A stretch of 64,000 bases of DNA. Source: Metabacillus indicus LMG 22858. GTDB lineage: Bacteria > Bacillota > Bacilli > Bacillales > Bacillaceae. Location: contig NZ_JGVU02000022.1 of the NCBI RefSeq assembly GCF_000708755.2, positions 124,001-188,000 on the forward strand, in the 5' to 3' direction. Positions 21,231 through 58,068 of the stretch are shown here, in pieces; within the stretch, counting starts at the first letter, position 1; each line of letters begins with the position of its first letter. The notes beneath the pieces were generated by a model. That model ran no database searches and was not told the DNA's origin. It was given only the letters and a program-made list of their open reading frames with translations. The translations under genes and the position numbers were made by a program.

Positions 21231-21595
21231 AAAAACTCAGAGGTTGGTAAAACCTACCGAGCTTTTAAGAACCATCAATTCAAAAAAACTTAGAGCTTGG
21301 TGGCACTTATCAGGCTTATAAGAACCATCAATCCAAAAAACACGGAGGTTGATGGCACTTATCGAGTTTATAAGAACCATTAAATCAGGGTACTCAGAGG
21401 TTGATGGCACTTATCGGGCTTATAAGAATCATCAATCCAAAAAACTCAGAGCTTGGTGGCGCTTATCAGGCTTATAAGAACCATCAAGTCAAGAAAATCA
21501 GAGGTTTGTGGCACTTATCGGGCTTATAAGAACCATCAATCCAAAAAACTCAGAGCTTGGTGGCACTTATCGGGCTGATAAGAACAATCAAGTAA
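21231..21595. repeat. 52-bp tandem repeat array 1 (7 units)
   Basis: The anchor AAGAACCATCA recurs at 21267, 21320, 21372, 21424, 21476, 21528 and 21580: steps of 53 and then five times 52. Each unit holds an imperfect dyad, TTGGTGGCACTTAT against ATAAGAACCATCAA, around CGGGCT. Units contain either CAGAGCTTGGTGG or GAGGTTGATGG. No unique spacers, so it is not CRISPR. It lies between the yhaQP terminator and yhaO. Confidence 0.9.
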
Positions 21596-21596
21596 A

Positions 21597-21642
21597 GACT
21601 GACTCCCGGAGCAAAACGGCTGATTCCGCATTTCTATCCAGA
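21597..21642. repeat. Remnant of dispersed repeat R1
   Basis: GACTGACTCCCGGAGCAAAA and a T-rich end resemble the right third of R1 copy 1. Short and degraded. Confidence 0.45.
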
Positions 21643-21706
21643 ACGTGCATTCGCTTTTTCTTGATGGTACAATATAGAATAAGAGAAAAGTAAAGGAAGG
21701 TTCGAG

Positions 21707-22936
21707 ATGAAGGGGATTCGATTTATTCATGCGGCTGATCTGCATGTGGACAGTCCTTTTTTGGGGATGCGGCAGATCGCAGGTCCGATTTTTGAGAGGC
21801 TTAAAGAGAGTACGTTTGCTGCTTTGGACCGTTTAATAAAAGTAGCGATAGAAGAAAATGTGGATTTTATGCTGATTGCCGGTGATTTGTACGACGGGGA
21901 GGACCGCAGCCTGAAAGCGCAGCTTAGGCTGAAGAAGGCATTTGAAAAGCTGGATGAATACGGTATTCCCGTTTACGTCATCCACGGAAATCATGATCAT
22001 TTAAGCGGAAAATGGCTTGATTTAAGCTGGCCTGCAAATGTACATGTCTTTTCGGAAAAACAGGCTGAATGCAAGGTGTTTGAAAAGAATGGAACGATCG
22101 TTCATTTGTACGGGCGCAGCTATCCGGAGAGAGCTGTCTATGAAAACATGACTGCAGCTTTTGAAAAGCGGAATGGCGCAGATTTTCATATTGGCCTGCT
22201 GCATGGCTCTGTCAGCGGAAATACGGAGCATGATGCGTATGCGCCGTTTACAGCAGGAGATCTGCTCCAGAAAGAATTCGACTACTGGGCGCTCGGGCAT
22301 ATACACAAGCGCATGTCTCTCCGGGAACAGAATCCTCCCATTCTTTATTCAGGCAATGTACAGGGCAGGAACCGAAAGGAGACAGGCGAAAAGGGCTGTT
22401 ATCTCGTTTCCATGACGGAAGCGGAAACCTCCTATTCGTTTATGCCGCTTCACGATGTGAGGTGGGAGGAGCTTCAGTTTTCAGCAGACGGCAGCTTTCA
22501 GGAGATGCTGAACCGCCTGCATCAGGGCCTGGATGACATGAGAAGCAGCAGGGAACCGGTTGTTGTTACCGTACGGTTAACCGGTACAACTGATTTCTAT
22601 CATGCCCTTCAAGACGAACCGGTCCTCTCTGACATGCTTGAACAGTGGAACGAAGAAGAAAGCGACAGAGAAAATTTTGTATGGATTTCGTCTGTTATCA
22701 ATGAAACGATGCCAGTTTCAAGCGCAGATACTCTGCAGCTTGATTCTCATTTTCTGAAAGACCTGACAGAGATGATCCGGGAATTTGATCAATTTGATGA
22801 GGCCCTGCAGCCGCTCAGACATCATCCGGTTTATAGAAAACACATGCAGGATTTCGGGGAAGAGGAAAAAGAGCAGATCAAAAAAGAAGCAGAAACCCTG
22901 ATTTTTCAGGAGCTTTTTAAACATAGAAGATTGTGA
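21707..22936 (+). CDS. yhaO: SbcD/Mre11-like DNA exonuclease YhaO
   Basis: Metallophosphoesterase of 409 aa, expected to act with YhaN as a DNA end-processing nuclease. The two-metal motifs are in order: DLHVD (residues 9-13), GDLYDGED near 62, GNHDH near 98, HGSVSG near 165 and GHIHK near 200. It starts at an ATG behind AAAGGAAGG. The stop is 13 bp before yhaN, which fits one complex from one operon. Confidence 0.9.
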   Translation: MKGIRFIHAADLHVDSPFLGMRQIAGPIFERLKESTFAALDRLIKVAIEENVDFMLIAGDLYDGEDRSLKAQLRLKKAFEKLDEYGIPVYVIHGNHDHLSGKWLDLSWPANVHVFSEKQAECKVFEKNGTIVHLYGRSYPERAVYENMTAAFEKRNGADFHIGLLHGSVSGNTEHDAYAPFTAGDLLQKEFDYWALGHIHKRMSLREQNPPILYSGNVQGRNRKETGEKGCYLVSMTEAETSYSFMPLHDVRWEELQFSADGSFQEMLNRLHQGLDDMRSSREPVVVTVRLTGTTDFYHALQDEPVLSDMLEQWNEEESDRENFVWISSVINETMPVSSADTLQLDSHFLKDLTEMIREFDQFDEALQPLRHHPVYRKHMQDFGEEEKEQIKKEAETLIFQELFKHRRL

Positions 22937-22949
22937 GGCGGAGGAGCAC

Positions 22950-25900
22950 TTGAAAATCATCCAACTGAACATATACGGATACGGACAGTTTCACCACACT
23001 GAAATCATGCTTGATTCTCCGTCTTTTCAAGTCATCTACGGTGAAAATGAAGCGGGGAAATCAACCATCATGTCCTTTATACAGAGCATACTATTTGACT
23101 TTCCCCAAAAAGTGCAGCAGGAAAAGAGATATGAGCCTAAGCATGTTAATGCATATGGGGGATCGCTTGTGGCAGATACGGTCCAGCACGGGCGGGTGAA
23201 AATTGAGAGGCTGCCGGGAAAAGCAGGCAGCGGTGTCACGGTTTATTTTGAAAATGGCGAAACGGGAGGCGCAGATGTTCTTCAACAGCTGCTGTCCTAT
23301 TTTGATAAAACTGTGTATCAGTCCATTTACTCCTTTGATATTCATGGTATTCAGCAGGTAAGCAAAGTTGGTGCCGAAGACTTGGGCAAATTTTTATTAT
23401 CATCAGGACTGCTTGGTACGGACGCTGTTTTGCAGACAGAACTGAGCCTTTCAAAAAAACAGGAGCAGCTGTTTAAGCCAAATGGCAAAAAACCTGAAAT
23501 CAATGCAGCGCTTGCTGCCCTTAAAGACATCCACACCGAAGTGATGAAGGCAAAACAGCACCTTGAGCCCTACAGTGATCTGTTAAATGAAAAAGAAGCA
23601 GCAGAACATTCATTAAGGGAAATCACAGAGAGAAAAAGAGAGCTTGAAGCAGATGCGAAAAGATTTGGCGAAATCGTTGAAGCCCTTCCGCTTTTTCATG
23701 AAGAAGCTGCCCTTAAAGTTGAACTCGACAAAGCGCGGAGTCATTTTCCGTCCAATGGCCTGAAGCGCATGGAAGAGCTTGAAGGAAGAGAATCTCCCCT
23801 CAGGTCTGAATATATGGCACTGAAAACCATCATCCGCGAACAAACAGAGGCTATCGAACAAGTGCCGGATGATGAGCGTATTCTTGAGTATAAAGAAGAA
23901 ATCGAACGGCTGCGCGGAGAGTATTCTGCCTGGGAAATGAAGCGTGCTCAGTATGGCCAGATCAGGACGAAACTAGAAGAAACTGAGAGCAGAATACATG
24001 AGGAGAAAAAACGGCTGTTTTCCCATGAAATCGACAACCGCACCATTCTTGATTTGAACACAGGTGCAGCAGTGAAAGAAGAAATCAGAGAAATTGTAGG
24101 CAAACATCAGCACCTGCAGCAGAAGAAACAACTTCTTGATCAGCAGTTTGAACGGGTGAAGGAAAACCTTGAAGAAAGTGAAAGCAGATTGTCTGACTAT
24201 GCCGAAGGAATGCTTGAGGAAGAAGAAAGAAGGCAGCTTGAGGAACGGGTACGGGACCTTGAAGACGTGCAGCGGGCAAGTCTTGACAAGAAAAAACTAA
24301 GAGAAGAGCACCGCGCGGTACAAACGGACATTCGGAAACAAAAAGATGCCGTGGAAAAAAAGAACAGCCGGCTGAAAGGGCTGGGCGTGTTTTTTGCTCT
24401 TATCATCCTTCTTTGCACGGGCTGGCTGCTCTCTGAAGAACTTTGGCTGATTGCGGCTGTGCTCTTAAGCCTTGGCCTTGCAGGTTTCTTCATTTTAATG
24501 AAAAACAGCAAATCCGATACGTCTTTCTTAGAGCATCTAGAGAAAAAAGAGAAGGAATTAAAAGAGCAGCTGGATGCGGCGGACAATGACTCTGATACCA
24601 CCTCAGATATGGAAACGGCAAAGGGAATGCTGTGGAAGGATGAACAAATCAGGCGCTCATACGAACTTGAAGAAGTGGTTTTTAAGCAGAGTGAGCGCGC
24701 TTATGACCGTACGGTGTCCAGTTTTGATGACTGGGAAAAGGAATACTATACTGCTGATCAGCAGGCACGGCGCGCATTTGAAGCCCTGCATATGGACAGC
24801 TCCTTTTCACCTCTCTCCCTCCCTGACCTCCTGCAGTCGGCTGCAAATCTGCAGAACGATATTCTGGCATTCAGACAGGCAGAAAAGAAAGCAGCAGAGC
24901 TTTCAGCTGATCTCACGGCTTATGAAAAAAAGGTCGCTTCCTTGGCACAGTCCTTTGAGATCGAGGGTACTGCTTGCAGCAGCCTTCTTGACGGCCTTTT
25001 AAAAGCATTGAAGGATTCTGAAGAAAATAAGCGGATGCGGGAAACGGCTGCTGCAAAAAGAGCAGAAGCGGAAGATAAGCTTAAGAAGATTGATGCCGAG
25101 ATCGGTCTGCTCGAGGAGAAAAAGAACGAACTTTTATCACTTGCCGGCGCCTGTGATACAGAAGAGTTTTGTGAAAAGGCGAAAGAGGCAGAGCATTTGG
25201 CAGCTGTTAAACAGAAGGCATCCTGGATTCAGCAGCAGCTGAAGACAAAGCAGCACCTGCTGGCACATGAACCTCTCGATTTTTCAAAGGACTATACAGC
25301 AGAAAAAGCCAGGTGTGAGCAGGAGCTTATTGCTGCAGCAGACACTGAGAACCAGCTTAAAAAGAAGCTTGCTGAGCTGACAGTACACATTAAAAGCATG
25401 GAAGAATCAGGGGTGTATTCAGATTTAAAACAAAAGGCCGCGCTCCAAAAAGAAGAAGTGAAGCAGCTTGCCCGTCAATGGGCGGTTCTTGCTGCTGCCA
25501 GACATATGCTGAACCAGACGGTAGAGTACAGCCGGTCTGTCAGGCTGCCAAGCTTGCTAGAGCAGGCCGAATCTTTCTTCAGCAGGCTGACGAATGAACG
25601 GTATGTGAAAGTTTTTCTCCCTGAAAATGAACAAACCATCACAGTCGAACGAAAAGATGGAACCCGATTTGCAGCGCACGAACTTTCCCAGGCAACAGCA
25701 GAGCAGCTCTATATTGGGATCCGGCTGGCGCTCTCATGCCATATCAGTACTTCAGAAGCGATGCCGCTGCTGATTGATGATGGGTTTGTGAATTTTGACA
25801 GGGAACGGACAGGCAGGGTGATGGACCTGCTCAGAGAGCTGTCTGAACACCATCAAATTCTATTTTTCACCTGTCAGGAACATTTGTTAAAGCTGTTTCA

Positions 25901-25964
25901 TGAAAGCGAAATTCTGGACCTGGAAAAGAAGAAGAGGGCTGCGGGCCTGTCTCCTCATTCCTGA
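22950..25964 (+). CDS. yhaN: SbcC/Rad50-like ATPase YhaN with membrane hairpin
   Basis: SMC-like ATPase of 1004 aa, partner of YhaO. Walker [10 protein letters not shown] is at residues 31-39, followed by long coiled coils (about 190-470 and 540-860). The C-terminal half has an ABC-like signature [14 protein letters not shown] and a Walker B-like [11 protein letters not shown] with Asp in place of the usual Glu. Unlike SbcC, the middle (about residues 478-517) is strongly hydrophobic ([12 protein letters not shown] ... ILM), enough for two membrane segments. TTG start behind GGAGGAG. Ends 77 bp before yhaM. Confidence 0.88.
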
Positions 25965-26001
25965 CGCACGGTTTACAGCAGATAAAACAGACTGATTATG
26001 C

Positions 26002-26020
26002 TATACTCAGAATACTGAGT
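26002..26020 (+). promoter_or_regulatory. Extended -10 promoter with palindrome ahead of yhaM
   Basis: TGCTATACT is an extended -10. It runs into ACTCAG-AATA-CTGAGT, a perfect 6-bp inverted repeat at the expected start of transcription. Confidence 0.4.
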
Positions 26021-26041
26021 CACTATGGGAGGGACCGCATT

Positions 26042-26989
26042 ATGACGCCAAAAGGCATTAATCATTACGGGGTAGGAGAGCAGGCTGACGTATTCTTGCT
26101 TGTTAAAACATCCACTAAAGGCATTGCAAGCAACGGGAAACCGTTTTTAACGCTTATTCTGCAGGATCAATCCGGAGAGATCGAAGCAAAGCTCTGGGAT
26201 GCAGGTCCTGAGGATGAAGCATCATACAGTTCTCAAAGCATTGTTAAAATATATGGAGACATTCATCATTACCGCGGGCGCAATCAGTTGAAGATCCGCA
26301 ACATCCGCACAGCATCCGCTGCTGATAACGTGAAAATATCGGATTTTCTTGAAACCGCTCCAGTCGGACAGGAAGAAATGATGGAAAAAGTCACACAGTA
26401 CATCTTTGAAATGAAAAATCCGAATATCCAGCGCATCACAAGATATCTCATGAAAAAGCATCAGAACGAATTTCTTGAATATCCGGCTGCAACGAAAAAC
26501 CATCATGAATTTGTATCAGGTCTTGCCTACCATGTCGTGTCCATGCTGGATTTGGCAAAGTCAATCGCAGACCTTTATCCGACCCTGGACAAAGATCTGC
26601 TTTATTCAGGTGTCATCCTTCATGACCTAGGAAAAGTTACAGAGCTTTCCGGCCCGATCGGTACGACCTATACGGTAGAAGGAAACCTGATCGGACATAT
26701 TTCCATCATGGTAAACGAAATCGCAAAAGCAGCAGAGCATCTTGGCATTGAAGGGGAAGAGGTTGTGATCCTTCAGCATCTGGTGCTCAGCCATCACGGA
26801 AAAGCGGAGTGGGGAAGCCCTAAACCGCCGCTGATCAAAGAAGCTGAAATTCTTCATTACATCGATAACCTTGATGCAAAAATGAACATGCTTGACCGCG
26901 CACTTGAACGCGTAAAACCAGGCGAATACACAGAGCGCGTTTTTGCTCTTGATAACCGGTCGTTTTATAAACCTGCTTTTCATAAGTGA
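26042..26989 (+). CDS. yhaM: 3'-5' exoribonuclease YhaM
   Basis: RNA-degrading 3'-5' exonuclease of 315 aa. The N-terminal OB-fold (residues 15-100, [16 protein letters not shown]) binds nucleic acid. The HD domain follows from about 155 ([39 protein letters not shown]). It is close to B. subtilis YhaM in length and motifs. ATG behind GGGAGGGA, with its own promoter at 26002. Confidence 0.92.
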
Positions 26990-26993
26990 TAAC

Positions 26994-27030
26994 AAAGCCC
27001 TTTCTCTTTTTAAAGAGGAGGGCTTTTAAT
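26994..27030 (+). terminator. Rho-independent terminator after yhaM
   Basis: AAAGCCC..CTC..GAG..GGGCTTTT stem with a T-rich tail five bases after the stop. Confidence 0.75.
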
Positions 27031-27111
27031 TTTTTCAGATAAAGGGATAATCGGCCAGGCTCTCACATATAGTGCAGTAAGAGGCTTGTCAAAGAAAAGG
27101 GGGAAAAGGGC

Positions 27112-27303
27112 ATGATCTTGCTGCCATGGTGGGTTTACCTCTGCGTACTTGGGATTTTATACAGCGGCTACATGGCTTTTTCAACAACGAGAAAAGAAAG
27201 AATCGTTGAAGAAGCCTATATAGAAAAAGAGGGCAATGTGTACATCGAACGGATGATGAAAGAACGCGAATCGAGGAAAAAGAATGAGGATGAAGAGAAC
27301 TGA
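27112..27303 (+). CDS. yhaL: Sporulation protein YhaL
   Basis: 63 aa with an N-terminal membrane segment (LPWWVYLCVLGILYSGYMAF) and a highly charged C-terminal tail (ERMMKERESRKKNEDEEN). This matches B. subtilis YhaL, a small sporulation-linked membrane protein, in sequence type, size and position between yhaM and prsA. Good ribosome binding site (AAAAGGGGGAAAAGGGC). Confidence 0.85.
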   Translation: MILLPWWVYLCVLGILYSGYMAFSTTRKERIVEEAYIEKEGNVYIERMMKERESRKKNEDEEN

Positions 27304-27317
27304 AGATGGTGAAAAAG

Positions 27318-27347
27318 CAGCCGGGAGTATGTTCCCGGCTGTTTTTT
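27318..27347 (+). terminator. Rho-independent terminator after yhaL
   Basis: CAGCCGGGA / TCCCGGCTG stem, 6-nt loop, six T. Confidence 0.92.
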
Positions 27348-27369
27348 GTGTGTGATGAAATATAGATTT

Positions 27370-27640
27370 GTGCCCTTCGTGAAGTGTTCCAAGGTGTGAA
27401 GGTCACAAAACAGGAAGGAATGTGCCCTTCGTGAGGTGCTCCGTGGTGTGAAGGTCACAAAGCAGGAAGGAATGTGCCCTTCGTGAAGTTTTCCAAGATG
27501 CGAAGGTCACAAAACGGGAAGGAATCTGCCCTTCGTTAAGTGTTCCAAGGTGTGAAGGTCACAAAACAGGAAGGAATGTGCCCTTGGTGAAGTGTTCCAA
27601 GGTGTGAAGGTCACAAAACAGGAAGGAATGTGCAGTTTCA
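27370..27640. repeat. 52-bp tandem repeat array 2 (5 units and a partial)
   Basis: The GTGCCCTT anchor is at 27370, 27422, 27474, 27526 (CTGCCC), 27578 and 27630 (partial): every step is 52. Each unit pairs GTGCCCTTC with GAAGGTCAC across a 19-nt loop. It lies between convergent yhaL and prsA, after both terminators on the yhaL side. Same family as array 5. Confidence 0.9.
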
Positions 27641-27686
27641 GGATATGTAAGAACGTGCTTTTAACGACTATACAACCATACGAACT

Positions 27687-27716
27687 AAAAAAGCCCCGAA
27701 GCTTTCACTTCAGGGC
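27687..27716 (-). terminator. Rho-independent terminator after prsA
   Basis: On the minus strand GCCCTGAAG / CTTCGGGGC stem (G-U allowed), then six T. Confidence 0.85.
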
Positions 27717-27732
27717 ATGTATCGATTCTTTA

Positions 27733-28593: not shown

Positions 28594-28859
28594 CTGATAC
28601 AACTCCTGATTCTGTTTTTAGTAAGGATAATTTCGCCTTTTCTGCTGATTTATGTCTGAAAACAAGTATGTACAATGCAAAACGGCAGGGCGAAATATCC
28701 CTTAAGGCAGCGGACTGCCTAATTATTGGAACACTATACCACATTGTGCCATGAACTAAAAAGTTTTGCAATAGGACCAGGGTAATCAGGGCATTCGTCT
28801 AGGTCAAATCTGCAAAACGTCCATATGATGTATGGAACACCGATAAGGGAGGTTTTATT

Positions 28860-28946: not shown

Positions 28947-29047
28947 GTAGCGAAGGGCTAAAAATTTTCAAACAAAAGACAGTGGCCTATTCGCTGTAAA
29001 GTGATCATGCATAGTATATCTTACCGACGTATAAAGGAGGTGTCATT

Positions 29048-29131: not shown

Positions 29132-29143
29132 GCCAAAACTAAA

Positions 29144-34727: not shown

Positions 34728-35098
34728 TTTTGCCGCACAAACTCTGGTGGGAGAAGAGAGGAAAGTGTTCTAAAAAGGGTTTAGCAACATTAACCCTGGT
34801 TGGAGAAGAGGGGAAAGTGTTCTATAGAGTGTTTAGCTGCACAAACTCAGGCTGAAGAATGGAGGAAAGTGTTCTAAAAAAAGTTAAGCCGCACAAACCC
34901 TGGCTGGAGAAGATAGGAAAGTGTTCTAAAAAGGGTTTAGCAACATTAACCCTGGTTGGAGAAGAGAGGAAAGTGTTCTAAAAAGGGTTTAGAAACATTA
35001 ACCCTGGCTGGAGAAGAGAGGAAAGTGTTCTGAAAAGGGTTTAGCAACATTAACCCTGGTTGGAGAAGAGAGGAAAATGTTTTAAAAAGGGTTTAGGA
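34728..35098. repeat. 52-bp tandem repeat array 3 (7 units and a leading partial)
   Basis: The GAAAGTGTTCT anchor is at 34761, 34813, 34865, 34917, 34969, 35021 and 35073: six steps of exactly 52. Two unit types occur: one with GGGTTTAGCAACATTAACCC, a hairpin, and one with GCACAAAC. It lies between divergent hit and ecsA. Same family as array 4. The open frame at 35060-35275 is not a gene. Confidence 0.9.
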
Positions 35099-49298: not shown

Positions 49299-51650
49299 AT
49301 GAGTTTAATGGCTAAAGAGTGGAAAGCGTTAGTTTCCAACAAAAAAGTGCTGATTCCGGTCCTTGCTGTTTTATTTATCCCGCTCATGTATGCAGGGATG
49401 TTCCTTTGGGCGTTCTGGGATCCGTATGAGCAGCTAGATCAGCTTCCTGTCGCCGTAGTCAACGAAGATACTGGAGCTGATTATGAAGGAACAGAGCTTC
49501 AAATTGGATCTGAGCTTGTTGATAATTTGAAAGCAAATCCAAAGTTCAAGTGGGAATTTGTTTCAAAAGATGAGGCTGTGAGAGGCCTTGAAAACGAGCA
49601 GTACTATATGATGATTGAAATACCCGAGAATTTTTCAGAAAATGCGACAACACTGATGGACGAGGATCCTCAGTCACTTGAGCTGAAATATGTTCCGAAT
49701 GAAGGCTTTAACTTCTTGTCAGGGCAAATTGGCGGAACAGCCGTTGCTCAAATTAAAGAAGAAGTCTCAAATACCATTACGAAAACCTATGCGGAAAGCA
49801 TCTTTGAAAACATTGACAAACTTGCAGACGGACTTGGCGATGCAAGTGAGGGAGCAGGCAAGATTGATGAGGGTGTCATCGACCTGAAAGGCGGTTCAGC
49901 TGAACTGAAAGAAAAGCTTGAGCTGCTTGCAGGAAAATCGATTACGTTTAAGGACGGATTGAATGACGCTTCTGCCGGAGCAAAGAAACTGGCAGACGGA
50001 GCCCAAAAGCTAGACAGCGGTCTGGGACAGCTTCAGGACGGGAGCGGGAAGCTTTACAGCGGATCAATGAGCGCTGAAAAAGGAGCTGCCCAGTTGAACG
50101 AAGGTCTTGGAACGTCTCTGTCCGGAATGAAAGAGCTTCAGAGCAATGTTCCGAAACTTACTGCCGGGGCAGAAGGAATCAGTGCCGGAGCGGGTGAATT
50201 ATCCGGAGGCCTTAACCGCCTTTCTGACGGAAGCACGGCATTAGCTGCCGGAGCAGGTGAATTATCTACAGGGCTGGATAAGCTTTCTGCCGGTAATCAG
50301 GCTGCCTATAAGGGAGCCGGAGAACTCTCTGCAGGCCTGACACAGCTGAATGACCAGCTGGCAGTCATGCTGCCGCAAATTGAGAAGCTTCCTCTTCCGG
50401 AAGCCGAGAAACAAAAATTGATTGAAGCAGCAAAAGGCGTCAGCCAGCTTTCTGAAGGAAGCAAACAGCTGGAGTCAAGTCTTGGCCAGCTTTCTGCGGG
50501 CGCTGCCGATGCACAAAAGGGAGCAGCTACTATTGCAGATAAAAGTGCAGAGCTTTCAGCAGGAGCCGGAAAGCTTCAGGAAGGTGCTTCCAAGCTTTCA
50601 AGCGGTTCTTCTGAACTTGCAGCAGGCCAAAAGAAAGCAGAAGAAGGCATCAATCAGCTTGTGGCCGGACAGGAAAAACTGTATGCGGGCTCAGGCGATC
50701 TATTGAGTGGTCAAAAACAATTAACAGAAGGACAAAAGACTTTTAATCAGGAATTCGCGAAAGCTAAAGCCGGCTCCGCTGAACTTGCTGCCGGCAATAG
50801 TGAACTCGGCTCCGGAATTTCAAAGCTTGCTGAAGGATCAGGTGCGCTTCAGGACGGCACAAACAAGCTTGCTGACGGTGCCGGAAAAGTGGACGAAGGC
50901 GTTGGCAAATTGTCTGAAGGGACAGGCGAGCTGTCATCAAAACTTGGTGACGCAGCAGAGGAAACAAAAGATGCCGGCGGCTCAGATGAAACCTATGACA
51001 TGATTTCAGAGCCGGTAAAAGTAAAAGATGAAAAAATCAACGCCGTTCCAAACTACGGAACAGGTTTTGCGCCATACTTCCTGTCACTCGGACTATTCGT
51101 TGGGGCCCTGCTGCTTTCCATCGTATTCCCGTTAAGACAGGCAGCAGGAACGCCTAAGAGCGCAATTGGCTGGTTCATGAGCAAGTTTGGTGTTCTGGCA
51201 GCAGTCGGAGTTATCCAGGCCTTGCTTGCCGATGCGGTTTTACTCTATGGACTTGATATTGAAGTACAAAGTGTTCCATTGTTTATTTTATTCAGCATCA
51301 TCACAAGCCTGGCATTCCTTACACTGGTTCAATTCTTTGTAACATCACTCGGAGATCCGGGAAGATTTGTGGCTATTATTATCCTGATTCTTCAGCTTAC
51401 TACAAGCGCCGGAACATTCCCTCTTGAATTGATTCCAGAGCCATTGCAGATCTTTAATGCATGGCTGCCGATGACCTATACGGTTTCAGGTTTTAAAGCG
51501 GTCATCTCATCAGGTGATTACAGCTTTATGTGGCAGCAGGCAGGTATCCTCGGCATCTTCATTGCAGCGATGATTGCCGGAACGATTGCCTACTTCTTCA
51601 TGGCCATCAGAAAAAACAAGAACAGCTTAACAGAGAAAGCTGCAGCATAA
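49299..51650 (+). CDS. yhgE: YhgE/Pip family membrane protein
   Basis: 783 aa. One N-terminal membrane segment (residues 15-38), then an extracytoplasmic region in which an L-x-x-G-x-x-x-L repeat recurs from about residue 190 to 560 (for example GAGELSTGLDKLSAGNQAAY). Five or six C-terminal segments from about 590 resemble an ABC-2 permease. The family includes lactococcal phage infection protein Pip. The extended repeat probably forms a long rod outside the cell. Start behind AGGAGG. Confidence 0.9.
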   Translation: MSLMAKEWKALVSNKKVLIPVLAVLFIPLMYAGMFLWAFWDPYEQLDQLPVAVVNEDTGADYEGTELQIGSELVDNLKANPKFKWEFVSKDEAVRGLENEQYYMMIEIPENFSENATTLMDEDPQSLELKYVPNEGFNFLSGQIGGTAVAQIKEEVSNTITKTYAESIFENIDKLADGLGDASEGAGKIDEGVIDLKGGSAELKEKLELLAGKSITFKDGLNDASAGAKKLADGAQKLDSGLGQLQDGSGKLYSGSMSAEKGAAQLNEGLGTSLSGMKELQSNVPKLTAGAEGISAGAGELSGGLNRLSDGSTALAAGAGELSTGLDKLSAGNQAAYKGAGELSAGLTQLNDQLAVMLPQIEKLPLPEAEKQKLIEAAKGVSQLSEGSKQLESSLGQLSAGAADAQKGAATIADKSAELSAGAGKLQEGASKLSSGSSELAAGQKKAEEGINQLVAGQEKLYAGSGDLLSGQKQLTEGQKTFNQEFAKAKAGSAELAAGNSELGSGISKLAEGSGALQDGTNKLADGAGKVDEGVGKLSEGTGELSSKLGDAAEETKDAGGSDETYDMISEPVKVKDEKINAVPNYGTGFAPYFLSLGLFVGALLLSIVFPLRQAAGTPKSAIGWFMSKFGVLAAVGVIQALLADAVLLYGLDIEVQSVPLFILFSIITSLAFLTLVQFFVTSLGDPGRFVAIIILILQLTTSAGTFPLELIPEPLQIFNAWLPMTYTVSGFKAVISSGDYSFMWQQAGILGIFIAAMIAGTIAYFFMAIRKNKNSLTEKAAA

Positions 51651-51656
51651 TCTTAA

Positions 51657-51689
51657 ACACCCGAAGCGAAAAGCTTCGGGTGTTTTTTG
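51657..51689 (+). terminator. Terminator after yhgE
   Basis: ACACCCGAAGC / GCTTCGGGTGT perfect 11-bp stem, six T. Confidence 0.93.
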
Positions 51690-51754
51690 CAATGGAAAAA
51701 TCTATAAAACTATTATTGAAAGCCCTTACATTTTAACATATAATAGAAAAATGA

Positions 51755-51786
51755 GAACGATTTCACTGTGTGTACGCTGATCGTTC
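51755..51786 (+). promoter_or_regulatory. Inverted repeat ahead of the LacI-family gene
   Basis: GAACGAT (51755-51761) and ATCGTTC (51780-51786) with an 18-nt spacer, downstream of a TATAAT near 51740. Possible autoregulatory site. Confidence 0.4.
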
Positions 51787-51807
51787 GCAAGATGAGGAGG
51801 AGTGAAC

Positions 51808-52821
51808 GTGTCTACAATCGAGGATGTGGCCAGACTTGCAGGACTTTCAAGGACCACTGTTTCCCGGGTCATCAACAATCATCCGTACGTTTCCGATTCG
51901 AAGAAAAAGGTTGTCTTAGAAGCAATGGATGAGCTTGGTTATGTTCCGAATTCATCTGCAAGAAGTCTTCGAAATCAAAAAACTGAAATTATTGCCGTTT
52001 TTATACCGCGGGTGCTGAATCCCTTTTTCAGCCAATTTATCGAATCACTTGAAATGGCGTCGTCAGCCAGGAACTATCAGCTGATCGTGTGCCAGACTCA
52101 ATATTCCAAATCAAAAGAGCTCACCTATTTAAACCTTCTTAAAACAAAGCAGGTGGATGGTGTGATACTGGCATCCCTGGAGAATGACTGGAGCAAAATC
52201 GAGCCATTCACCGATTACGGTCCGATTGTTCTTTGCAATGAGTTTGAAGAGGACGCATCTGTGCCGATGATCAGGCTCGATCAGACATTTGGCGGATACA
52301 TAGCAACCAAGCACCTGATTGAACAGGGACACACCCATATCGGCTATTGCTGCGGCGGGCACAGAAGCAACGTTGCCAAAGAACGGGAAAGAGGCTTCAG
52401 GCAGGCACTGATGGAAGCGGGATTAACGTTTGATGAAAATGCCGCATTCCGGAATGCCTTCAATATCGAAGACGGAAAACGTGTTTTTCATGAGCTGGCT
52501 GCTTTGGAGAATAGGCCGTCCGCTCTTTTTACCGGAGCAGATGAAGTGGCCGCAGGCGTTATTTCTGAAGCGAAAAAAAACGGCTGGAGCATTCCTTCTG
52601 ACCTTGCAGTTGTGGGATTTGATAACCAGGCCATCACAGAACTGCTCGATCCTATGATTACAACCGTTCAGCAGCCTGTCTGCGAAATGGCTCAAAAAGC
52701 CATGGACATCATGATTGAAAAAATAAACAGAAAATCATACGCTGCCAGGGAAGTCTATCAGTTTCCGCTTAAACTGATTATAAGAGATTCAACGGGCGGC
52801 AAAAAGCTCGCAAACGTTTAA
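51808..52821 (+). CDS. LacI family transcriptional regulator
   Basis: 337 aa. HTH at residues 1-22 (STIEDVARLAGLSRTTVSRV), hinge PNSSARSLRNQKT, and a periplasmic-binding-protein-like effector domain. Start: the GTG at 51808 is seven bases from GAGGAGG; a GTG at 51802 is too close. No sugar genes are adjacent, so its target is unclear; the large catalase gene follows after a terminator. Confidence 0.88.
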   Translation: MSTIEDVARLAGLSRTTVSRVINNHPYVSDSKKKVVLEAMDELGYVPNSSARSLRNQKTEIIAVFIPRVLNPFFSQFIESLEMASSARNYQLIVCQTQYSKSKELTYLNLLKTKQVDGVILASLENDWSKIEPFTDYGPIVLCNEFEEDASVPMIRLDQTFGGYIATKHLIEQGHTHIGYCCGGHRSNVAKERERGFRQALMEAGLTFDENAAFRNAFNIEDGKRVFHELAALENRPSALFTGADEVAAGVISEAKKNGWSIPSDLAVVGFDNQAITELLDPMITTVQQPVCEMAQKAMDIMIEKINRKSYAAREVYQFPLKLIIRDSTGGKKLANV

Positions 52822-52828
52822 TAGAGTA

Positions 52829-52857
52829 AGGCACCAGCCAGAGGCTGGTGCCTTTTT
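52829..52857 (+). terminator. Terminator after the LacI-family gene
   Basis: AGGCACCAGCC-AGA-GGCTGGTGCCT, then five T. Confidence 0.93.
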
Positions 52858-52876
52858 ATGTGCATGCGCCATGAAT

Positions 52877-52901
52877 GTTTACTGGAAAGAAAATAGTGGT
52901 A
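52877..52901 (+). promoter_or_regulatory. Weak SigB-like promoter ahead of katE
   Basis: GTTT, 15 bp, GTGGTA resembles the SigB pattern GTTT...GGGTAT loosely. B. subtilis katE is SigB-dependent. If real, the start at 52944 fits and upstream starts do not. Confidence 0.3.
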
Positions 52902-52943
52902 ATTCAAAAGGGTGACTATTACTGTACGGAAGGGATGAGAAAT

Positions 52944-54998
52944 TTGGACAAGCAGAGTAAAAACAGCAAGGATGAGCAGCTGGAAGCATACCGGGTTGAT
53001 GATAAAGACGGGAACATGACCACCAATCAGGGGCTTAAGGTTTCAGATGACGAGCATTCTCTAAAAGCTGGCGATCGCGGGCCCACACTGATGGAGGACT
53101 TTCATTTCCGGGAAAAGATGACCCATTTCGACCACGAGCGGATTCCGGAGCGCGCTGTCCATGCAATGGGCTACGGGGCACACGGGTATTTCCAGGTATA
53201 CGAGCCGATGAAGGAATTTACGATGGCGGGATTTTTGCAGGATCCTTCGGTTAAAACACCTGTATTCGTACGGTTTTCAACGGTGGCTGGCTCAAAAGGG
53301 TCTGCAGATACAGTCAGGGATGTCAGGGGATTTGCCGTGAAGTTTTATACGGAAGAGGGAAACTATGATCTGGTCGGGAACAATATCCCAGTCTTTTTCA
53401 TCCAGGATGCGATTAAATTTCCGGATCTCGTCCATGCGGTAAAGCCGGAGCCTCATAATGAAATGCCCCAGGCCTCATCTGCGCATGACACGTTCTGGGA
53501 CTTCATTGCCAACAATCAGGAATCGGCACACATGATGATGTGGGCGATGTCTGACCGGGCGATTCCCCGCAGCTACCGGATGATGGAAGGATTCGGCGTA
53601 CATACATTCAGGTTTGTCAATGAGGAAGGAAAAGCACGATTTGTAAAATTCCACTGGAAACCGAAGCTCGGCGTGCATTCTCTAGTATGGGACGAAGCCC
53701 AGAAGCTTGCCGGAAAAGATCCTGATTTTCACAGAAGAGATCTTTACGAATCCATCGAGAACGGTGACTATCCAGAATACGAGCTTGGAGTTCAGATGAT
53801 TGAGGAAGAGGACGAATTCAAATTCGACTTTGATCTCCTTGATGCAACGAAACTATGGCCGGAGGAAATCGTACCCGTTAAAATCATCGGTAAAATGACG
53901 CTCGACCGCAATCAGGATAATGTGTTTGCCGAATCGGAGCAGGTTGCGTTCCATCCGGGACATGTCGTGCCGGGCATTGATTTTACAAATGACCCGCTGC
54001 TGCAGGGGCGTCTCTTTTCCTACACAGATACACAGATTACAAGACTTGGCGGTCCGAACTTCCATGAGATTCCGATCAACCGTCCTGTCTGTCCATTTCA
54101 TAACAACCAGCGGGACGGCATGCACCGCATGACCATAAACCGCGGTCAGACGGCCTACCATCAGAACTCGCTTGCCCAAAACGCTCCGCGTCCTGCAACG
54201 CGGGAGCAAGGCGGATATGTCCACTATCAGGAAAAAGTGGATGGACGGAAGATCCGCCAGCGCAGCGAGAGCTTTAAAGATCATTTCTCGCAGGCTAAGC
54301 TGTTCTGGAACAGCATGACAGAAGTTGAAAAGCAGCATATGATTTCTGCCTTCCGCTTTGAGCTCGGCAAAGTAAAAAGCAAGAGCGTTCAGCAGCAGGT
54401 CGTTCATATGATCAGCTGCATTGACAGCACACTTGCCGGTGAAGTGGCTGAGGGGATTGGCGCTTCGGTGCCGAATGAGCAAACGGAATCAGGCGTCACT
54501 CTTGAGTCTCCGGCACTTAGCCAGGAAAAAACGGTCAAAGTTCCCGATACGCGCAAAGTGGCAGTGCTTGCTGAAGACGGCTACGATTCGGCTTCCCTGA
54601 ACGCTTTTATTAGTAAGATGAAAGAAACAGGAATGATGCCTGAAGTCATCAGCCATACGCTGAGTCCGCTGAAAAGTGAGGGCGGCGAAGAGCTTGAGGT
54701 TGATCATACCTTCCTCACAAGTGATTCCATTCTGTTCGACTCATTTTATGTAGCGGGCGGGCAGAAGAGTAAAGAGCTCCTGCTCGGCAAAAAAGACGCC
54801 GCAGCATTTCTAAAAGAAGGATTCAGTCATTTTAAGCCAATTGGAGCTGCCTATGAAGCTGCAGAAGTACTTGAAGCAGCGGGAATAGCTAATGGTCCCG
54901 GCGTTATTGTAGCAGAACAATCACAAGATCCGGCGGTATTCTCTGATGCATTTATCAGTGCAGCAGCCGATCACCGTCATTGGGATCGGGAAGTTTGA
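52944..54998 (+). CDS. katE: Large-subunit catalase KatE (HPII type)
   Basis: Heme catalase degrading hydrogen peroxide; 684 aa from the TTG at 52944. Catalytic His in [16 protein letters not shown], Asn in [12 protein letters not shown], and proximal Tyr in [14 protein letters not shown]. The C-terminal part (from about 525) is the flavodoxin/PfpI-like domain of large catalases ([18 protein letters not shown]). Start: TTG at 52944 follows GGAAGGGATGAG and gives a family-like N-terminus; in-frame ATGs at 52875 and 52935 are less well placed. Confidence 0.93.
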
Positions 54999-55004
54999 CG
55001 ATGG

Positions 55005-55033
55005 AGACACTGAGAAATCAGTGTCTTTTTTTT
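55005..55033 (+). terminator. Terminator after katE
   Basis: AGACACTGA / TCAGTGTCT, 4-nt loop, eight T. Confidence 0.92.
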
Positions 55034-55096
55034 CTATTTATAGGGGTTTGTATGTTCACGTTTGTTTTGCAGCATTTTATGGTCGTGGATTATAGA

Positions 55097-55428
55097 GAAA
55101 GTGCTGTAAGCGGCGGTTAAGCGCACAAACGCGGTTATGGAAAAGGAGAAAGTGTTGTTAAAGGCGGTTAAGAACACTAACGTGGTTAGGAAGAAGAGGG
55201 AAAGTGCTGCAAGCGGTGGTTAAGCGCATAAACGCGGATATAGAAAAAGGAGAATTTTGCTGTTAAAGGTGGTTAAGAACACTAACGTGGTTAGGAAGAA
55301 GAGGGAAAGTGCTGTAAACGAAGGTTAAGCGCACAATCGTAGCCCCCAAAAATAGCAAAAGTGTTGTAAACGGAGTTTAAGAACACAAACGTAATTAATG
55401 AAAATCGAGAAAGTGCTGTAAAAGTCCG
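55097..55428. repeat. 52-bp tandem repeat array 4 (7 units)
   Basis: The GAAAGTG anchor is at 55097, 55148, 55200, 55252, 55305, 55357 and 55409: steps 51, 52, 52, 53, 52, 52. Two unit types alternate: a with GCGCACAAACGCGG, and b with the dyad AGTGTT-G-TTAA ... TTAA-G-AACACT. It lies between the katE terminator and convergent yhfH. Same family as array 3. Confidence 0.88.
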
Positions 55429-55429
55429 C

Positions 55430-55459
55430 AAAAAAAAGAAAGGACAATGTATCCTTTCT
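55430..55459 (-). terminator. Terminator after yhfH
   Basis: AGAAAGGA / TCCTTTCT stem, with T-run on the minus strand. Confidence 0.75.
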
Positions 55460-55487
55460 CAAAAATATAGGTATAGGATCGGTATGG

Positions 55488-55622
55488 TTACAGGCTGCCG
55501 ACGTTCATGCACTTATCGCAAGTATTGCCGTAGCACTCGTGCTGCTCTTCAATCTTTTCCCCGCACTCAAGACATTTTTTCGCCGGCAGGTTTTTGAAAA
55601 ATTCAGTCATTTTAACTAACAT
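55488..55622 (-). CDS. yhfH: YhfH-like small zinc-ribbon protein
   Basis: 44 aa (MLVKMTEFFKNLPAKKCLEC ... MNVGSL). Cysteines form C17-x2-C20 and C30, C35-x2-C38, enough for one zinc site. This matches the YhfH family in sequence type (EFFKxLPxKxCxxCG, EQHECYGNTC) and in its place before yhfI. GGAGGGG is about seven bases before the ATG. Function unknown. Confidence 0.85.
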   Translation of the reverse strand: MLVKMTEFFKNLPAKKCLECGEKIEEQHECYGNTCDKCMNVGSL

Positions 55623-55814
55623 TGGTATCCCCTCCAAGTTGTTATTACACACATTGTATTATAACAGATAGAGGTATGTCAACATCTGTTTTGTAACAAT
55701 GTGCTTCTTTTCAAAAAATGGGCTGCTGTCTGCATGTTTATAGTGGCCTCAGCTTGCGCTTATCAGCGGAAAATGGGTATATTGTAAGATAGGAATGAGC
55801 GAGGGAGGATTCAC

Positions 55815-56555
55815 ATGAAAATAACGGTTGTTGGTTTTTGGGGAGGATTTCCTGCTGTTAATGAAGCTTCTTCCGGATACCTGTTTGAATCAGATGGTTT
55901 CCGGCTCTTAGTTGATTGCGGAAGCGCGGTTTTATCCCAGCTGCAGAATTATGCAAAACCGGAAGAAATCGATGCGGTAATTCTGTCTCATTATCACCAT
56001 GATCATATTGCTGATGTAGGGCCGCTGCAATTTGCCAGACTTGTTGGATCCTTTATGAATAAAAGCAGCAGGACGCTGCCTATATACGGCCATTCAGCTG
56101 ATGCAGAAGCATTTGCAGGGCTTACATACAAAGAAGTAACGGCAGGGAAAGCATATAATCCGGAAGAATCCATCCAGATTGGGCCTTTTCACATCCGTTT
56201 TATGAAAACAAAGCATCCGGTAGACTGCTATGCGATGCGGATTTCGGATGGTTCATCAGAAGTAGTTTACACGGCTGACTCAAGCTACAGAGAAGAGTTT
56301 GTGCCATTTTCAAAAGATGCGGATCTTCTGCTGTGCGAATGCAATTTTTACGGAGATATGGACGGCTCGTCGGCCGGGCATATGAACAGTCTTGATGCCG
56401 GCAAACTTGCTGAGCATGCTTCTGTAAAGGAACTGATCCTGACTCACCTTCCTCATTTCGGAGAAGTGTCAAATCTCGTAAGTGAGGCCGAAACGATTTA
56501 CAAAGGTCCTGTCCGTCTTGCAGCATCCGGCCTGCAATGGACAAAGGGCAATTAG
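55815..56555 (+). CDS. yhfI: MBL-fold metal-dependent hydrolase YhfI
   Basis: 246-residue metallo-beta-lactamase fold protein of the RNase Z-like group. Metal motif SHYHHDHIAD near residues 58-67, later His in TKHPVDCYA near 134, Asp in YTADSSY near 153, and ILTHLPHF near 212. ATG behind GGGAGGA. It ends 12 bp before lplJ. Substrate unknown. Confidence 0.88.
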   Translation: MKITVVGFWGGFPAVNEASSGYLFESDGFRLLVDCGSAVLSQLQNYAKPEEIDAVILSHYHHDHIADVGPLQFARLVGSFMNKSSRTLPIYGHSADAEAFAGLTYKEVTAGKAYNPEESIQIGPFHIRFMKTKHPVDCYAMRISDGSSEVVYTADSSYREEFVPFSKDADLLLCECNFYGDMDGSSAGHMNSLDAGKLAEHASVKELILTHLPHFGEVSNLVSEAETIYKGPVRLAASGLQWTKGN

Positions 56556-56567
56556 GAGGAAAAGTAC

Positions 56568-57557
56568 ATGCTGTTTATTGATAATAAAGGAATAACGGAT
56601 CCGAGAATCAATCTGGCCATAGAAGAGTATTGCCTGAAAAATCTTGATCCTGAGCAATCTTATTTGCTTTTTTACATTAACGAACCTTCCATTATCATCG
56701 GAAAAAATCAAAATACTATTGAAGAAATCAACACAAAGTATGTGGAAGAGCAGGGTCTTCATGTTGTGCGGAGGCTTTCAGGCGGGGGTGCGGTTTATCA
56801 TGATCTTGGAAACCTGAACTTCAGCTTTATTACAAAAGATGACGGAGACAGCTTCCACAACTTCAAAAAATTCACTGAGCCTGTGACACGGGCATTGAAG
56901 CGTCTTGGTGTAGATGCAGAGCTGAGCGGCCGCAATGATATCCTTGCTGAAGGCAGAAAGATTTCAGGAAATGCCCAGTTTTCTACAAAGGGCAGAATGT
57001 TCAGCCATGGAACGCTGCTGTTTGATTCGGAAATGGAAAACGTCGTGTCCGCGCTGAAAGTGAAAAAGGACAAGATCGAATCAAAAGGAATTAAATCCAT
57101 TCGCAGCCGTGTGGCAAACATCAGTGAATTTCTTGAAGAGAAGATCACGATTGAGGAATTCAGAGAACTGATTCTGCGCTATATTTTTGATACAGACGGC
57201 GAAATTCCGCAATACGTTTTAACGGAAGCGGATTGGGAAAACATCCATGCTCTTTCTGAGGAACGCTATCAGAACTGGAACTGGAATTACGGCAAATCGC
57301 CATCCTTTAACCTCCAGCATTCCCACCGCTTTCCGATCGGACAGATTGACATCCGTCTGGAAGTGAAGAAAGGCAAAATCGAAAACTGCAAAATCTTCGG
57401 AGACTTTTTCGGAGTGGGTGATGTTGAAGAAATCGAAAACCTTCTCACCGGCCTGCAATATGACCGTTCTTCCATAGAAACGGCTTTGAGGGACACAGAT
57501 ATCAAACATTATTTCGGCAATATTGAAAAAGAACAATTTATTGAGCTTATTTATTGA
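56568..57557 (+). CDS. lplJ: Lipoate-protein ligase LplJ
   Basis: Attaches free lipoate to E2 and GcvH proteins via lipoyl-AMP. 329 aa. Lipoate-binding RRLSGGGAVYHDLGNLNFSF near residue 66, and the catalytic Lys in RKISGNAQ near 130. C-terminal accessory domain present. ATG behind TAGGAGG. Probably an operon with yhfI. Confidence 0.94.
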   Translation: MLFIDNKGITDPRINLAIEEYCLKNLDPEQSYLLFYINEPSIIIGKNQNTIEEINTKYVEEQGLHVVRRLSGGGAVYHDLGNLNFSFITKDDGDSFHNFKKFTEPVTRALKRLGVDAELSGRNDILAEGRKISGNAQFSTKGRMFSHGTLLFDSEMENVVSALKVKKDKIESKGIKSIRSRVANISEFLEEKITIEEFRELILRYIFDTDGEIPQYVLTEADWENIHALSEERYQNWNWNYGKSPSFNLQHSHRFPIGQIDIRLEVKKGKIENCKIFGDFFGVGDVEEIENLLTGLQYDRSSIETALRDTDIKHYFGNIEKEQFIELIY

Positions 57558-57566
57558 GCGTGAAGG

Positions 57567-57591
57567 GCGTCCTTTTTTAGGGCGCTTTTTT
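57567..57591 (+). terminator. Terminator after lplJ
   Basis: GCGTCC / GGGCGC (one G-U pair) with a T-run. Confidence 0.65.
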
Positions 57592-57654
57592 ATTGATTGA
57601 TGGGAAATATGCTGCTCAGATTATCTCCTCGGCACGGCCTTGGTTGTCCTGGAA

Positions 57655-58068
57655 TGGAAATAACCCTTCATCGAGATCCACTCTGTGCGAATGTCACAAA
57701 GCCGCGTGGAAATGACCCTTCATCGAGATCCACTCTGTGCGAATGTCACAAAGCCGTGTGGAAATGACCCTTCAGCATAATCAAATCTGTGCGAAGGTCA
57801 CAAAGGCGCGTGGAAATGACCCTTCATCGAGATCCACTCCGTGCGAAGGTCACAAAGCCGCGTGGAAATGACCCTTCATCGAGATCCACTCTGTGCGAAT
57901 GTCACAAAGCCGTGTGGAAATGACCCTTCAGCATGATCAAATCTGTGCGAAGGTCACAAAGGCGCGTGGAAATGACCCTTCAGCATGATCAAATCTGTAC
58001 GAAGGTCACAAAGGCGCGTGGAAATGACCCTTCAGCATGATCAACTCTGTGCGAAGGTCACAATCCGT
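57655..58068. repeat. 52-bp tandem repeat array 5 (8 units)
   Basis: ACCCTTC is at 57663, 57715, 57767, 57819, 57871, 57923, 57975 and 58027: seven steps, each exactly 52. Two unit types differ in the middle: TCGAGATCCACTCTG and AGCATGATCAAATCTG; units 1-3 and 4-6 follow the same order. TGACC(C)TTC pairs with GAAGGTCA. Lies between the lplJ terminator and the lcfB promoter. Same family as array 2. Confidence 0.92.

What the first reader, a model, noticed from the sequence alone, without database searches (positions are those of the whole stretch)
21231..58068. Five unrelated-looking tandem arrays share a 52-bp period
Seen: arrays at 21231, 27370, 34728, 55097 and 57655 have 5 to 8 units each. 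I located an anchor in every unit; of 30 steps, 27 are exactly 52 bp and the others are 51 or 53. The arrays fall into three sequence families, yet length is kept. Every family carries a dyad inside the unit. Inference: selection or a copying mechanism fixes the length rather than the sequence. 52 bp is almost five turns of B-DNA, so equivalent points would lie on the same face, as needed for a repeating protein or nucleoid contact. All five are intergenic, placed both between convergent and between divergent genes, so they are not just terminators.
Basis: partly seen in the sequence, partly recalled or inferred. Interest (0 to 1): 0.82.

Follow-up and report, generated by a model that had tools for sequence, protein, structure and literature searches.

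The report
Fixed-length 52-base repeat arrays
A relative of Bacillus carries many clusters of repeated DNA whose unit is nearly always 52 or 53 letters long although its spelling differs from cluster to cluster; the pattern was already in print, and the new analysis suggests that each unit holds a pair of mirrored DNA landing sites whose spacing, rather than the filler between them, is what evolution protects.

Summary
In detail: five intergenic arrays, 27 of 30 measured units exactly 52 bp, three families. It is also already published: 52-nt repeats of constant size and variable sequence are described for Bacillus, and B. indicus, apparently this species or a near one, is listed with about 90 arrays (PMC8161180). 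New here: in 1.99 Mb of this genome 74 of 122 tandem-repeat groups have period 52/53. Units hold two inverted ~15-bp half-sites that change slowly (6-7% per unit, spacers 14-17%). Spacers drift in sequence but hardly in length: 29 substitutions per indel against 7.9 in ordinary intergenic DNA. The dyad arms do not covary, which speaks against a hairpin. Arrays favour convergent gaps and avoid divergent ones. In a close relative, of the five window sites three carry the same family with other unit numbers, one another family, one none. Best reading: DNA-level rows of binding sites for an unidentified protein. RAYT/REP and RTP/Ter were tested and not supported as partners. Known kind, unknown function.

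The parts
21231..21591 (.). 52-bp array, family A (half-sites TAAGAACCAYCAA and inverted TTGRTGGCACTTATC), about 7 units, between tandem genes (ABC-2 permease and metallophosphatase)
27369..27633 (.). 52-bp array, family C (outlier), about 5 units, between convergent genes with a terminator on each side; the same site in relative G004 holds a family A array
34740..35096 (.). 52-bp array, family B, about 7 units, between divergent genes (HIT protein and ABC ATPase)
55094..55422 (.). 52-bp array, family B, about 6 units with measured unit lengths 51, 52, 52, 53, 52, 52; downstream of the catalase gene; TRF also scores a 105-bp period
57655..58063 (.). 52-bp array, family C, about 8 units, between lplA and an AMP-binding enzyme gene; the site in G004 has no array
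21189..21218 (+). intrinsic terminator between the upstream gene and the array at 21231 (read by eye)
   Evidence: sequence
27317..27347 (+). intrinsic terminator left of the array at 27369 (conserved in G004, read by eye)
27687..27717 (-). intrinsic terminator of the convergent PPIase (prsA-like) gene right of the array at 27369 (conserved in G004, read by eye)
55006..55033 (+). intrinsic terminator of the catalase gene before the array at 55094 (read by eye)
   Evidence: sequence
57567..57591 (+). intrinsic terminator of lplA before the array at 57655 (read by eye)

Best explanation
The arrays are DNA-level elements. Each 52-bp (or 53-bp) unit holds two ~15-bp half-sites in opposite orientation, a long spacer (about 17-19 bp) and a short one (about 4-7 bp), so that site cores follow each other at roughly half a period, alternately inverted. 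Shown here: half-sites are conserved between arrays and between units, spacers are free in sequence but nearly fixed in length, the two arms vary independently, matching units hardly occur outside arrays, and arrays prefer gaps behind gene ends. Inferred: an unidentified DNA-binding protein (or a few paralogues, one per family) binds the half-sites and makes contacts from one site to the next in both directions, so a length change in either spacer breaks the row and is selected against; unit number changes freely by recombination or slippage. What the coated array does for the cell (insulator or topological buffer at gene ends, nucleoid contact, or self-serving amplification) is not shown; a role at gene ends comparable to E. 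coli BIMEs is the likeliest guess.
For: Length constraint: array units show 3770 substitutions to 129 indels (29:1) in 94 arrays, against 1413:179 (7.9:1) in 21,889 bp of orthologous intergenic DNA and 198:1 in coding DNA; Fisher p 7e-28. Without indels in homopolymers of 4 or more: 40.5:1 against 13.0:1, p 1e-14. Off-length units are 40 of 604, where about 0.67 per unit would be expected at the control ratio. Half-sites: substitution per unit 6.1, 6.1, 7.3 and 6.7% at positions conserved between arrays against 17.1, 14.7, 13.9 and 15.7% at free positions for A, B, C and D (positions of middling conservation left out; 27, 21, 11 and 12 arrays); Spearman over all positions -0.87, -0.75, -0.56, -0.70. 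Core spacing inside a family is fixed: B 11 of 12, C 8 of 8, D 9 of 9, A 27 of 32 arrays where strict cores could be read. No covariation of arms: Watson-Crick 461 observed, 475 expected under independence, G:U 56 and 50, A:C 36 and 32, in 708 cells of 59 arrays. Matches of eight strict unit patterns: 203 inside arrays, 2 outside. Placement: 27 convergent, 38 tandem, 5 divergent against 10.2, 43.3, 16.6 (p 1e-8). In G004 the modal period is the same at 15 of 16 compared sites; at three of them two gaps between the consensus units cancel.
Against: No binding protein was found or even nominated. The fixed period is 53 in family D and in part of A, so a strict helical-phase rule does not hold. 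The common half-site is seen only inside this genome; in 32 units from other genera it is not clear (mean z 0.25). Published RNA-seq of B. coagulans shows its 52-nt arrays transcribed (PMC8625621, parts 1-2 of 3 read), which an RNA model would also predict, and only 51 of 93 gene-end sides of arrays have a predicted terminator, not far above other gene ends (124 of 293). Off-length units are not significantly more common at array ends (17 of 182) than inside (23 of 422; p 0.11), so decay outside a functional row is not demonstrated. Arrays were picked by TRF, which favours regular period; units of one array are not independent; aligned gap pairs may in part be misaligned substitutions.
Confidence: 0.5

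Rival explanations
1. Neutral satellite: the arrays have no function; period 52 is inherited from an ancestral unit, and slippage and unequal crossing-over keep units alike.
For: Unit numbers differ by 0.9 or more at 13 of 15 compared orthologous sites, and terminal units are a little more degenerate than internal ones (identity 0.868 and 0.910); arrays come and go between relatives; only about 30% of the Bacillus species in the published survey have such arrays (PMC8161180).
Against: Conserved half-site positions change at about half or less of the rate of spacers inside arrays and indels are depleted several-fold; drift would change spacer length along with spacer sequence. Placement is non-random.
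Confidence: 0.2
2. RNA element: the array is transcribed and each unit folds into a hairpin that acts as small RNA, sponge or mRNA stabiliser, as Subirana and Messeguer discuss.
For: Consensus units can fold into hairpins (without a shuffled control); 52-nt arrays of B. coagulans appear in RNA-seq (PMC8625621).
Against: Arms do not covary and G:U is not preferred over A:C beyond expectation; spacer lengths are nearly fixed, which flexible RNA linkers would not need; about half of the gene-end sides (51 of 93) have a predicted terminator before the array; no Rfam family at gathering threshold in the window.
Confidence: 0.12
3. REP/BIME-type elements spread by a RAYT (TnpA-REP) transposase.
For: Alternating inverted sites at regular spacing, extragenic, high copy number, one Y1 transposase gene in the genome.
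Against: Relative G004 has 20 arrays in 400 kb and no Y1_Tnp match at E 0.001; the single Y1 gene here has no tandem repeat in the 3.3 kb held around it; no covariation; no recurrent mobile gene near 74 arrays, judged by eye from protein clusters.
Confidence: 0.05
4. Arrays of replication-terminator (RTP/Ter) sites, polar fork barriers.
For: The genome encodes RTP (E 6e-55); half-sites resemble the recalled Ter motif by eye; family A arrays point with the G-rich strand, taken as leading, in 28 of 34 cases (p 2e-4, not corrected for four families; one locus counted twice).
Against: Three of five array-bearing genomes of other genera have no RTP match at E 0.001 and the other two only weak ones below the cut-off; two identical Ter-like sites of the usual kind lie near and 90 kb from the RTP gene (where 8 pattern hits stand against 6 for the control pattern); families B, C and D show no polarity (10 of 18, 4 of 10, 5 of 11).
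Confidence: 0.04

Closest known systems
52-nt constant-size tandem repeats of Bacillus (Subirana and Messeguer 2020, 2021)
   Same: Period 52 (sometimes 51 or 53), several sequence families in one genome, 4 or more units, non-coding. B. indicus is listed with 90 arrays on average, 96.6% of them 52-nt, and its family 7_52_18 matches our subfamily with TACCCTC..GAGGGTA (array C2:125807) by eye (PMC8161180, Table 1).
   Different: That paper reports short characteristic signals, often with their reverse in the same repeat, and only partial conservation of arrays between B. coagulans strains; a term search of its main text found no mention of half-site, spacer, terminator, promoter, ortholog, intergenic or convergent (supplements not read). 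The length-constraint test, the missing covariation, the gene context and the family exchange at one site are additions here.
BIME / REP elements of other bacteria
   Same: Extragenic, high copy number, regularly spaced sites in alternating orientation, protein-binding (PMC2817692, start of abstract in the listing only).
   Different: No covarying palindrome, no RAYT match in relative G004, nearly fixed period.
20-21-nt constant-size repeats of other Bacillus and other phyla
   Same: Constant size with variable sequence (PMC8161180).
   Different: Other size, largely other species; not studied here.
RTP/Ter fork barrier of Bacillus subtilis
   Same: Imperfect inverted half-sites, polarity along the replichore (this description of Ter is recalled); RTP gene present here.
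   Different: No partner match in three of five array-bearing genomes of other genera.

Membership tests
52-nt constant-size repeats (Subirana and Messeguer) | Unit length 52 nt, occasionally 51 or 53 | tested here: met
   27 of 30 window units are 52; 74 of 122 TRF groups in 1.99 Mb have 52/53
52-nt constant-size repeats (Subirana and Messeguer) | At least four units, non-coding, length not a multiple of three | tested here: met
   4.7 to 7.9 copies in the five window arrays; they lie between genes
52-nt constant-size repeats (Subirana and Messeguer) | Several families with different sequence in one genome | tested here: met
   Families A 48, B 22, D 12, C 11 and one singleton in 94 arrays of two genomes
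52-nt constant-size repeats (Subirana and Messeguer) | Sequence of the species' listed family (B. indicus 7_52_18) | tested here: met
   Compared by eye with array C2:125807 of this genome; that subfamily is not in the window itself
REP/BIME | Palindrome whose arms pair (compensatory change) | tested here: not met
   WC 461 against 475 expected
REP/BIME | Cognate RAYT transposase | tested here: not met
   0 matches in G004, which has 20 arrays in 400 kb
REP/BIME | GTAG or CGTC tag beside the palindrome | not tested
   feature seen only in the search listing; not scanned
RTP/Ter sites | RTP encoded wherever the sites are | tested here: not met
   No PF02334 match at E 0.001 in G040, G042 and G044, which carry 52-bp arrays
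Structured RNA repeats | Covarying stem | tested here: not met
   (many arm positions never vary and are silent)
Structured RNA repeats | Transcription | not testable with these tools
   No RNA data for this species; B. coagulans arrays are reported as transcribed (PMC8625621)
CRISPR array | Unlike spacers within one array | tested here: not met
   Spacers are alike within an array and differ between arrays
CRISPR array | cas genes nearby | not tested
   no cas search was run

The most novel reading that the evidence does not exclude
The arrays are scaffolds for an undescribed bacterial DNA-binding protein that assembles along DNA in steps of about 26 bp (half a unit), flipping orientation at each step: a chromatin-like row placed behind gene ends. 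Its binding sequence turns over quickly, so that families, and even whole arrays at one site, are exchanged between sister species, while the step length stays fixed across genera.
Probability: 0.3. Interest if true: 0.85.

Novelty: already known. Interest (0 to 1): 0.5.

Why it matters
Constant-length, variable-sequence repeats have had no explanation since they were described in 2020-2021, as far as three library searches show. The results here turn the question into a direct test: they separate a DNA model (fixed spacing of two independent half-sites, spacer sequence irrelevant) from an RNA model (pairing arms), and they name what to change (spacer length, half-site core) and where to look (gaps behind gene ends, convergent gene pairs). 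If a protein is found, it would be a new kind of bacterial chromosome-organising or insulating system with fast-changing specificity.

Tried and rejected
RAYT/REP partner: Y1_Tnp searched in 12 genomes; 7 match, G004 does not although it is rich in arrays. RTP/Ter: searched in 12 genomes; not required. Shared flanks or a carrier element: 150-bp flanks of 75 own arrays gave 19 pairwise hits, the longest 80 bp at 91% identity (C2:379264 right, C6:185522 left; not traced further), none common to many arrays. Recurrent neighbour gene: 438 ORFs beside 74 arrays cluster only into common kinds such as transporters and dehydrogenases, judged by eye from the first residues; no family scan was run on them. 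RNA hairpin: no covariation; no Rfam match in the window. Mobile elements: the array 21231-21591, the only one tried, has no match in 50,697 phage and 72,556 plasmid records, and one exact family A pattern found nothing in viral contigs. Solo sites of a regulon: 2 matches outside arrays with strict patterns. One half-site motif for all genera: leave-one-family-out works in part within this genome (top hits in register: B 19 and 14 of 21, A 8 and 16 of 35, C 5 and 7 of 11, D 0 and 7 of 12; about 3 in 52 expected), but arrays of a family are related, so these are few independent events, and the anchors were set by eye; in 32 units of other genera it fails (mean z 0.25). The period histogram was superseded. 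The JB 2020 paper could not be read.

Rows dropped before counts: the 54-bp array C2:519766 (it looks like coding repeats; not translated); arrays whose refined consensus did not have the reference length (leaving A 35 of 48, B 21 of 22, C 11 of 11, D 12 of 12) and in family A those without the CC[ACG][TC]CAA core (leaving 27); fifteen listed G004 arrays orthologous to own ones; spacing, arrays without a strict core match (A 16, B 10, C 3, D 3). One own locus (C22:217871-218513) was counted as two arrays throughout; dropping one copy would make the family A strand count 27 of 33. The automatic gene context rests on ORFs of 80 codons or more and counts window array 27369 as tandem because of a probably spurious ORF; by eye it is convergent.
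Full report
WHAT IS THERE. TRF finds the five arrays at the stated places with period 52 and 4.7 to 7.9 copies. Aligned unit by unit they give 30 unit lengths, 27 of them 52, with one 51 and two 53. No tRNA and no Rfam family at gathering threshold lies in the window. The window is Bacillaceae, most likely genus Metabacillus: lplA is 92% identical to that of M. idriensis at protein level and 95% at DNA level to an unnamed relative of the same genus, G004.

ALREADY IN PRINT. Subirana and Messeguer (PMC8161180; parts 1-4 of 5 and the tables read; supplements not read) describe 1886 arrays of 51-53 nt in 176 Bacillus genomes, present in about 30% of the species, with constant size, variable sequence and unknown function; they propose nucleoid stabilisation by a polymerising protein, or small RNAs. 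Their Table 1 lists B. indicus with 90 arrays on average, 96.6% of them 52-nt, and a consensus (7_52_18) that matches one of our subfamilies by eye (array C2:125807). A second paper of theirs (PMC8625621; parts 1 and 2 of 3 read) reports transcription of such arrays in B. coagulans. Their JB 2020 paper is not held. Three searches of the library listed no later explanation.

GENOME-WIDE. In 1,991,166 bp of this genome (48%), 74 of 122 TRF groups have period 52 or 53, about 37 per Mb. With 20 arrays from 400 kb of G004 they form four families: A 48 (TRF period 52 in 38, 53 in 10), B 22 (all 52), D 12 (all 53), C 11 plus the window array 27369, which stands alone at this cut-off (all 52). Modal unit lengths after re-alignment are A 37 at 52 and 11 at 53, B 22 at 52, D 12 at 53, C with 27369 12 at 52. 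In 80 loci of about 11 kb from other Bacillaceae, six 52-bp groups turned up in five loci, and the five genomes behind them hold more in 60 kb each.

ANATOMY. Each unit holds two conserved stretches of about 15 bp in opposite orientation, joined by a long (17-19 bp) and a short (4-7 bp) spacer. Examples, each read towards the long spacer: A GAATAGAACCATCAA and GATAAGTGCCATCAA; C GCTTATGACCCTTCA; D TAGTGCTGCCACTTTT and GAATGACGCCACAAA; B TTAGAACACTTTC and TTAGCAGCACAAAC. Where strict cores can be read, the core spacing is the same in 27 of 32 A arrays, 11 of 12 B, 8 of 8 C and 9 of 9 D (16 A, 10 B, 3 C and 3 D arrays had no strict match). A profile trained on three families finds the half-sites of the fourth in part, so the families may be versions of one site; this is suggestive only. 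Matching units outside arrays are nearly absent: 2, against 203 matches inside arrays over eight strict patterns.

SELECTION ON LENGTH, NOT ON SPACER SEQUENCE. Units compared with their own array consensus show 3770 substitutions and 129 indels (29:1). Orthologous intergenic DNA of the same two genomes, arrays masked, shows 1413:179 (7.9:1), and coding DNA 198:1. Leaving out indels in homopolymer runs of four or more, the figures are 40.5:1 against 13.0:1 (with a slightly wider mask: 1402 substitutions, 108 indels outside and 70 inside homopolymers). Off-length units are 40 of 604; 60 of 91 arrays with three or more measured units have units of one length only. Within arrays the substitution rate is 6.1-7.3% per unit at positions conserved between arrays and 13.9-17.1% at free positions, in all four families. 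Sixteen array sites were compared between this genome and G004: the modal period is equal at 15; at three sites two gaps between the consensus units cancel. Against this reading: TRF prefers regular arrays, units are related, cancelling gaps may be misaligned substitutions, and off-length units are not clearly concentrated at array ends (17 of 182 against 23 of 422, p 0.11).

NOT A HAIRPIN. If the dyad worked as RNA or single-stranded DNA, changes in one arm should be matched in the other. Over 708 arm cells of 59 arrays there are 461 Watson-Crick pairs against 475 expected if the arms vary independently, 56 G:U against 50 and 36 A:C against 32. Many arm positions never vary and are silent on this point.

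PLACEMENT. Of 74 own arrays 27 lie between convergent, 38 between tandem and 5 between divergent genes, and 4 overlap an ORF of 80 codons or more; by net intergenic length 10.2, 43.3 and 16.6 are expected (p 1e-8), by number of gaps 11.9, 46.1 and 11.9 (p 5e-6). The ORF calls are mechanical; window array 27369 was counted as tandem although it is convergent by eye. Of 93 gene 3' ends that face an array within 400 bp, 51 have a predicted terminator in between; of 44 promoter sides, 2; other gene ends score 124 of 293 over 100 bp. So arrays lie behind gene ends rather than at terminators as such. Family A arrays point with the G-rich strand in 28 of 34 cases, while B (10 of 18), C (4 of 10) and D (5 of 11) do not.

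TURNOVER. Of 22 own arrays in the stretches colinear with the G004 sample, 20 could be mapped (one locus counted twice); 17 have an array at the same site. Of the three others, C22:241100 shows two degenerate copies in G004 on alignment, so two sites lack an array: window 57655 and C1:37546. In the other direction three of 20 G004 arrays map to own stretches of about 100-130 bp without an array; a fourth (252579) maps to a 4.6-kb interval and is unresolved, because the overlap filter of that script did not check the contig. Unit numbers differ by 0.9 or more at 13 of 15 sites (this genome is a 22-contig assembly and may have collapsed some arrays). At window 27369 the flanking terminators are shared, yet G004 holds a family A array where this genome holds a family C array; replacement and extreme divergence cannot be told apart. 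At window 57655 G004 has about 16 other bases instead of the array and also lacks about 60 bp left and 20 bp right of it, so this is no clean insertion. No flanking element common to many arrays was found.

PARTNERS TESTED. Y1_Tnp (RAYT) is present once here, with no tandem repeat in the 3.3 kb held around it, and has no match in G004. RTP is present in all seven Metabacillus genomes searched, weak and below cut-off in two array-bearing genomes of other genera, and without a match in three others. Array-free status of other Metabacillus is not established, as only 20-50 kb of each was sampled, and one of them, G005, has an array. The 21231 array has no match in the phage or plasmid collections.

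VERDICT. Real, already published as a phenomenon and apparently for this or a near species, function open. Best-supported reading: rows of paired, inverted protein-binding half-sites in DNA with fixed spacing, confidence 0.5; the protein and its cellular role are inferred.

Noticed in passing
window 21595-21650; C2:37142-37430, C2:243772-244078, C6:83115-83399, C6:296960-297294; G004 C1 near 867380-868040: A second repeat family of period 121-125 bp, in several places directly beside 52-bp arrays (8 groups in the own sample, 5 in G004). Beside array 21231 G004 has several tandem copies where the window keeps only a remnant, by eye.
   Followed up: partly
G000:C2:500083-500421 and C2:410043, C2:500609: A replication terminator protein gene with two identical Ter-like sites in opposite orientation, one about 190 bp from the gene and one 90 kb away.
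   Followed up: partly
G000:C6:508247-508582: A lone Y1 (RAYT-like) transposase gene of 180 codons without tandem repeats in the 3.3 kb held around it.
   Followed up: partly
G004 C1:700001-1100000: Twelve TRF groups of period 27 bp in 400 kb of the relative, against one in 1.99 Mb of the own genome; perhaps a coding repeat cluster, not looked at.
   Followed up: no
family A arrays, own genome: Orientation bias with the G-rich (presumed leading) strand, 28 of 34, also 10 of 12 where the neighbouring genes are convergent (counted by eye from the rows, one of the twelve overlapping an ORF); unexplained.
   Followed up: partly
G005:C1:4740535-4741216 (L242): A 13-unit 52-bp array with another consensus in a further Metabacillus genome.
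   Followed up: no
C2:379264 right flank and C6:185522 left flank: An 80-bp stretch at 91% identity beside two arrays of different families; origin not traced.
   Followed up: no
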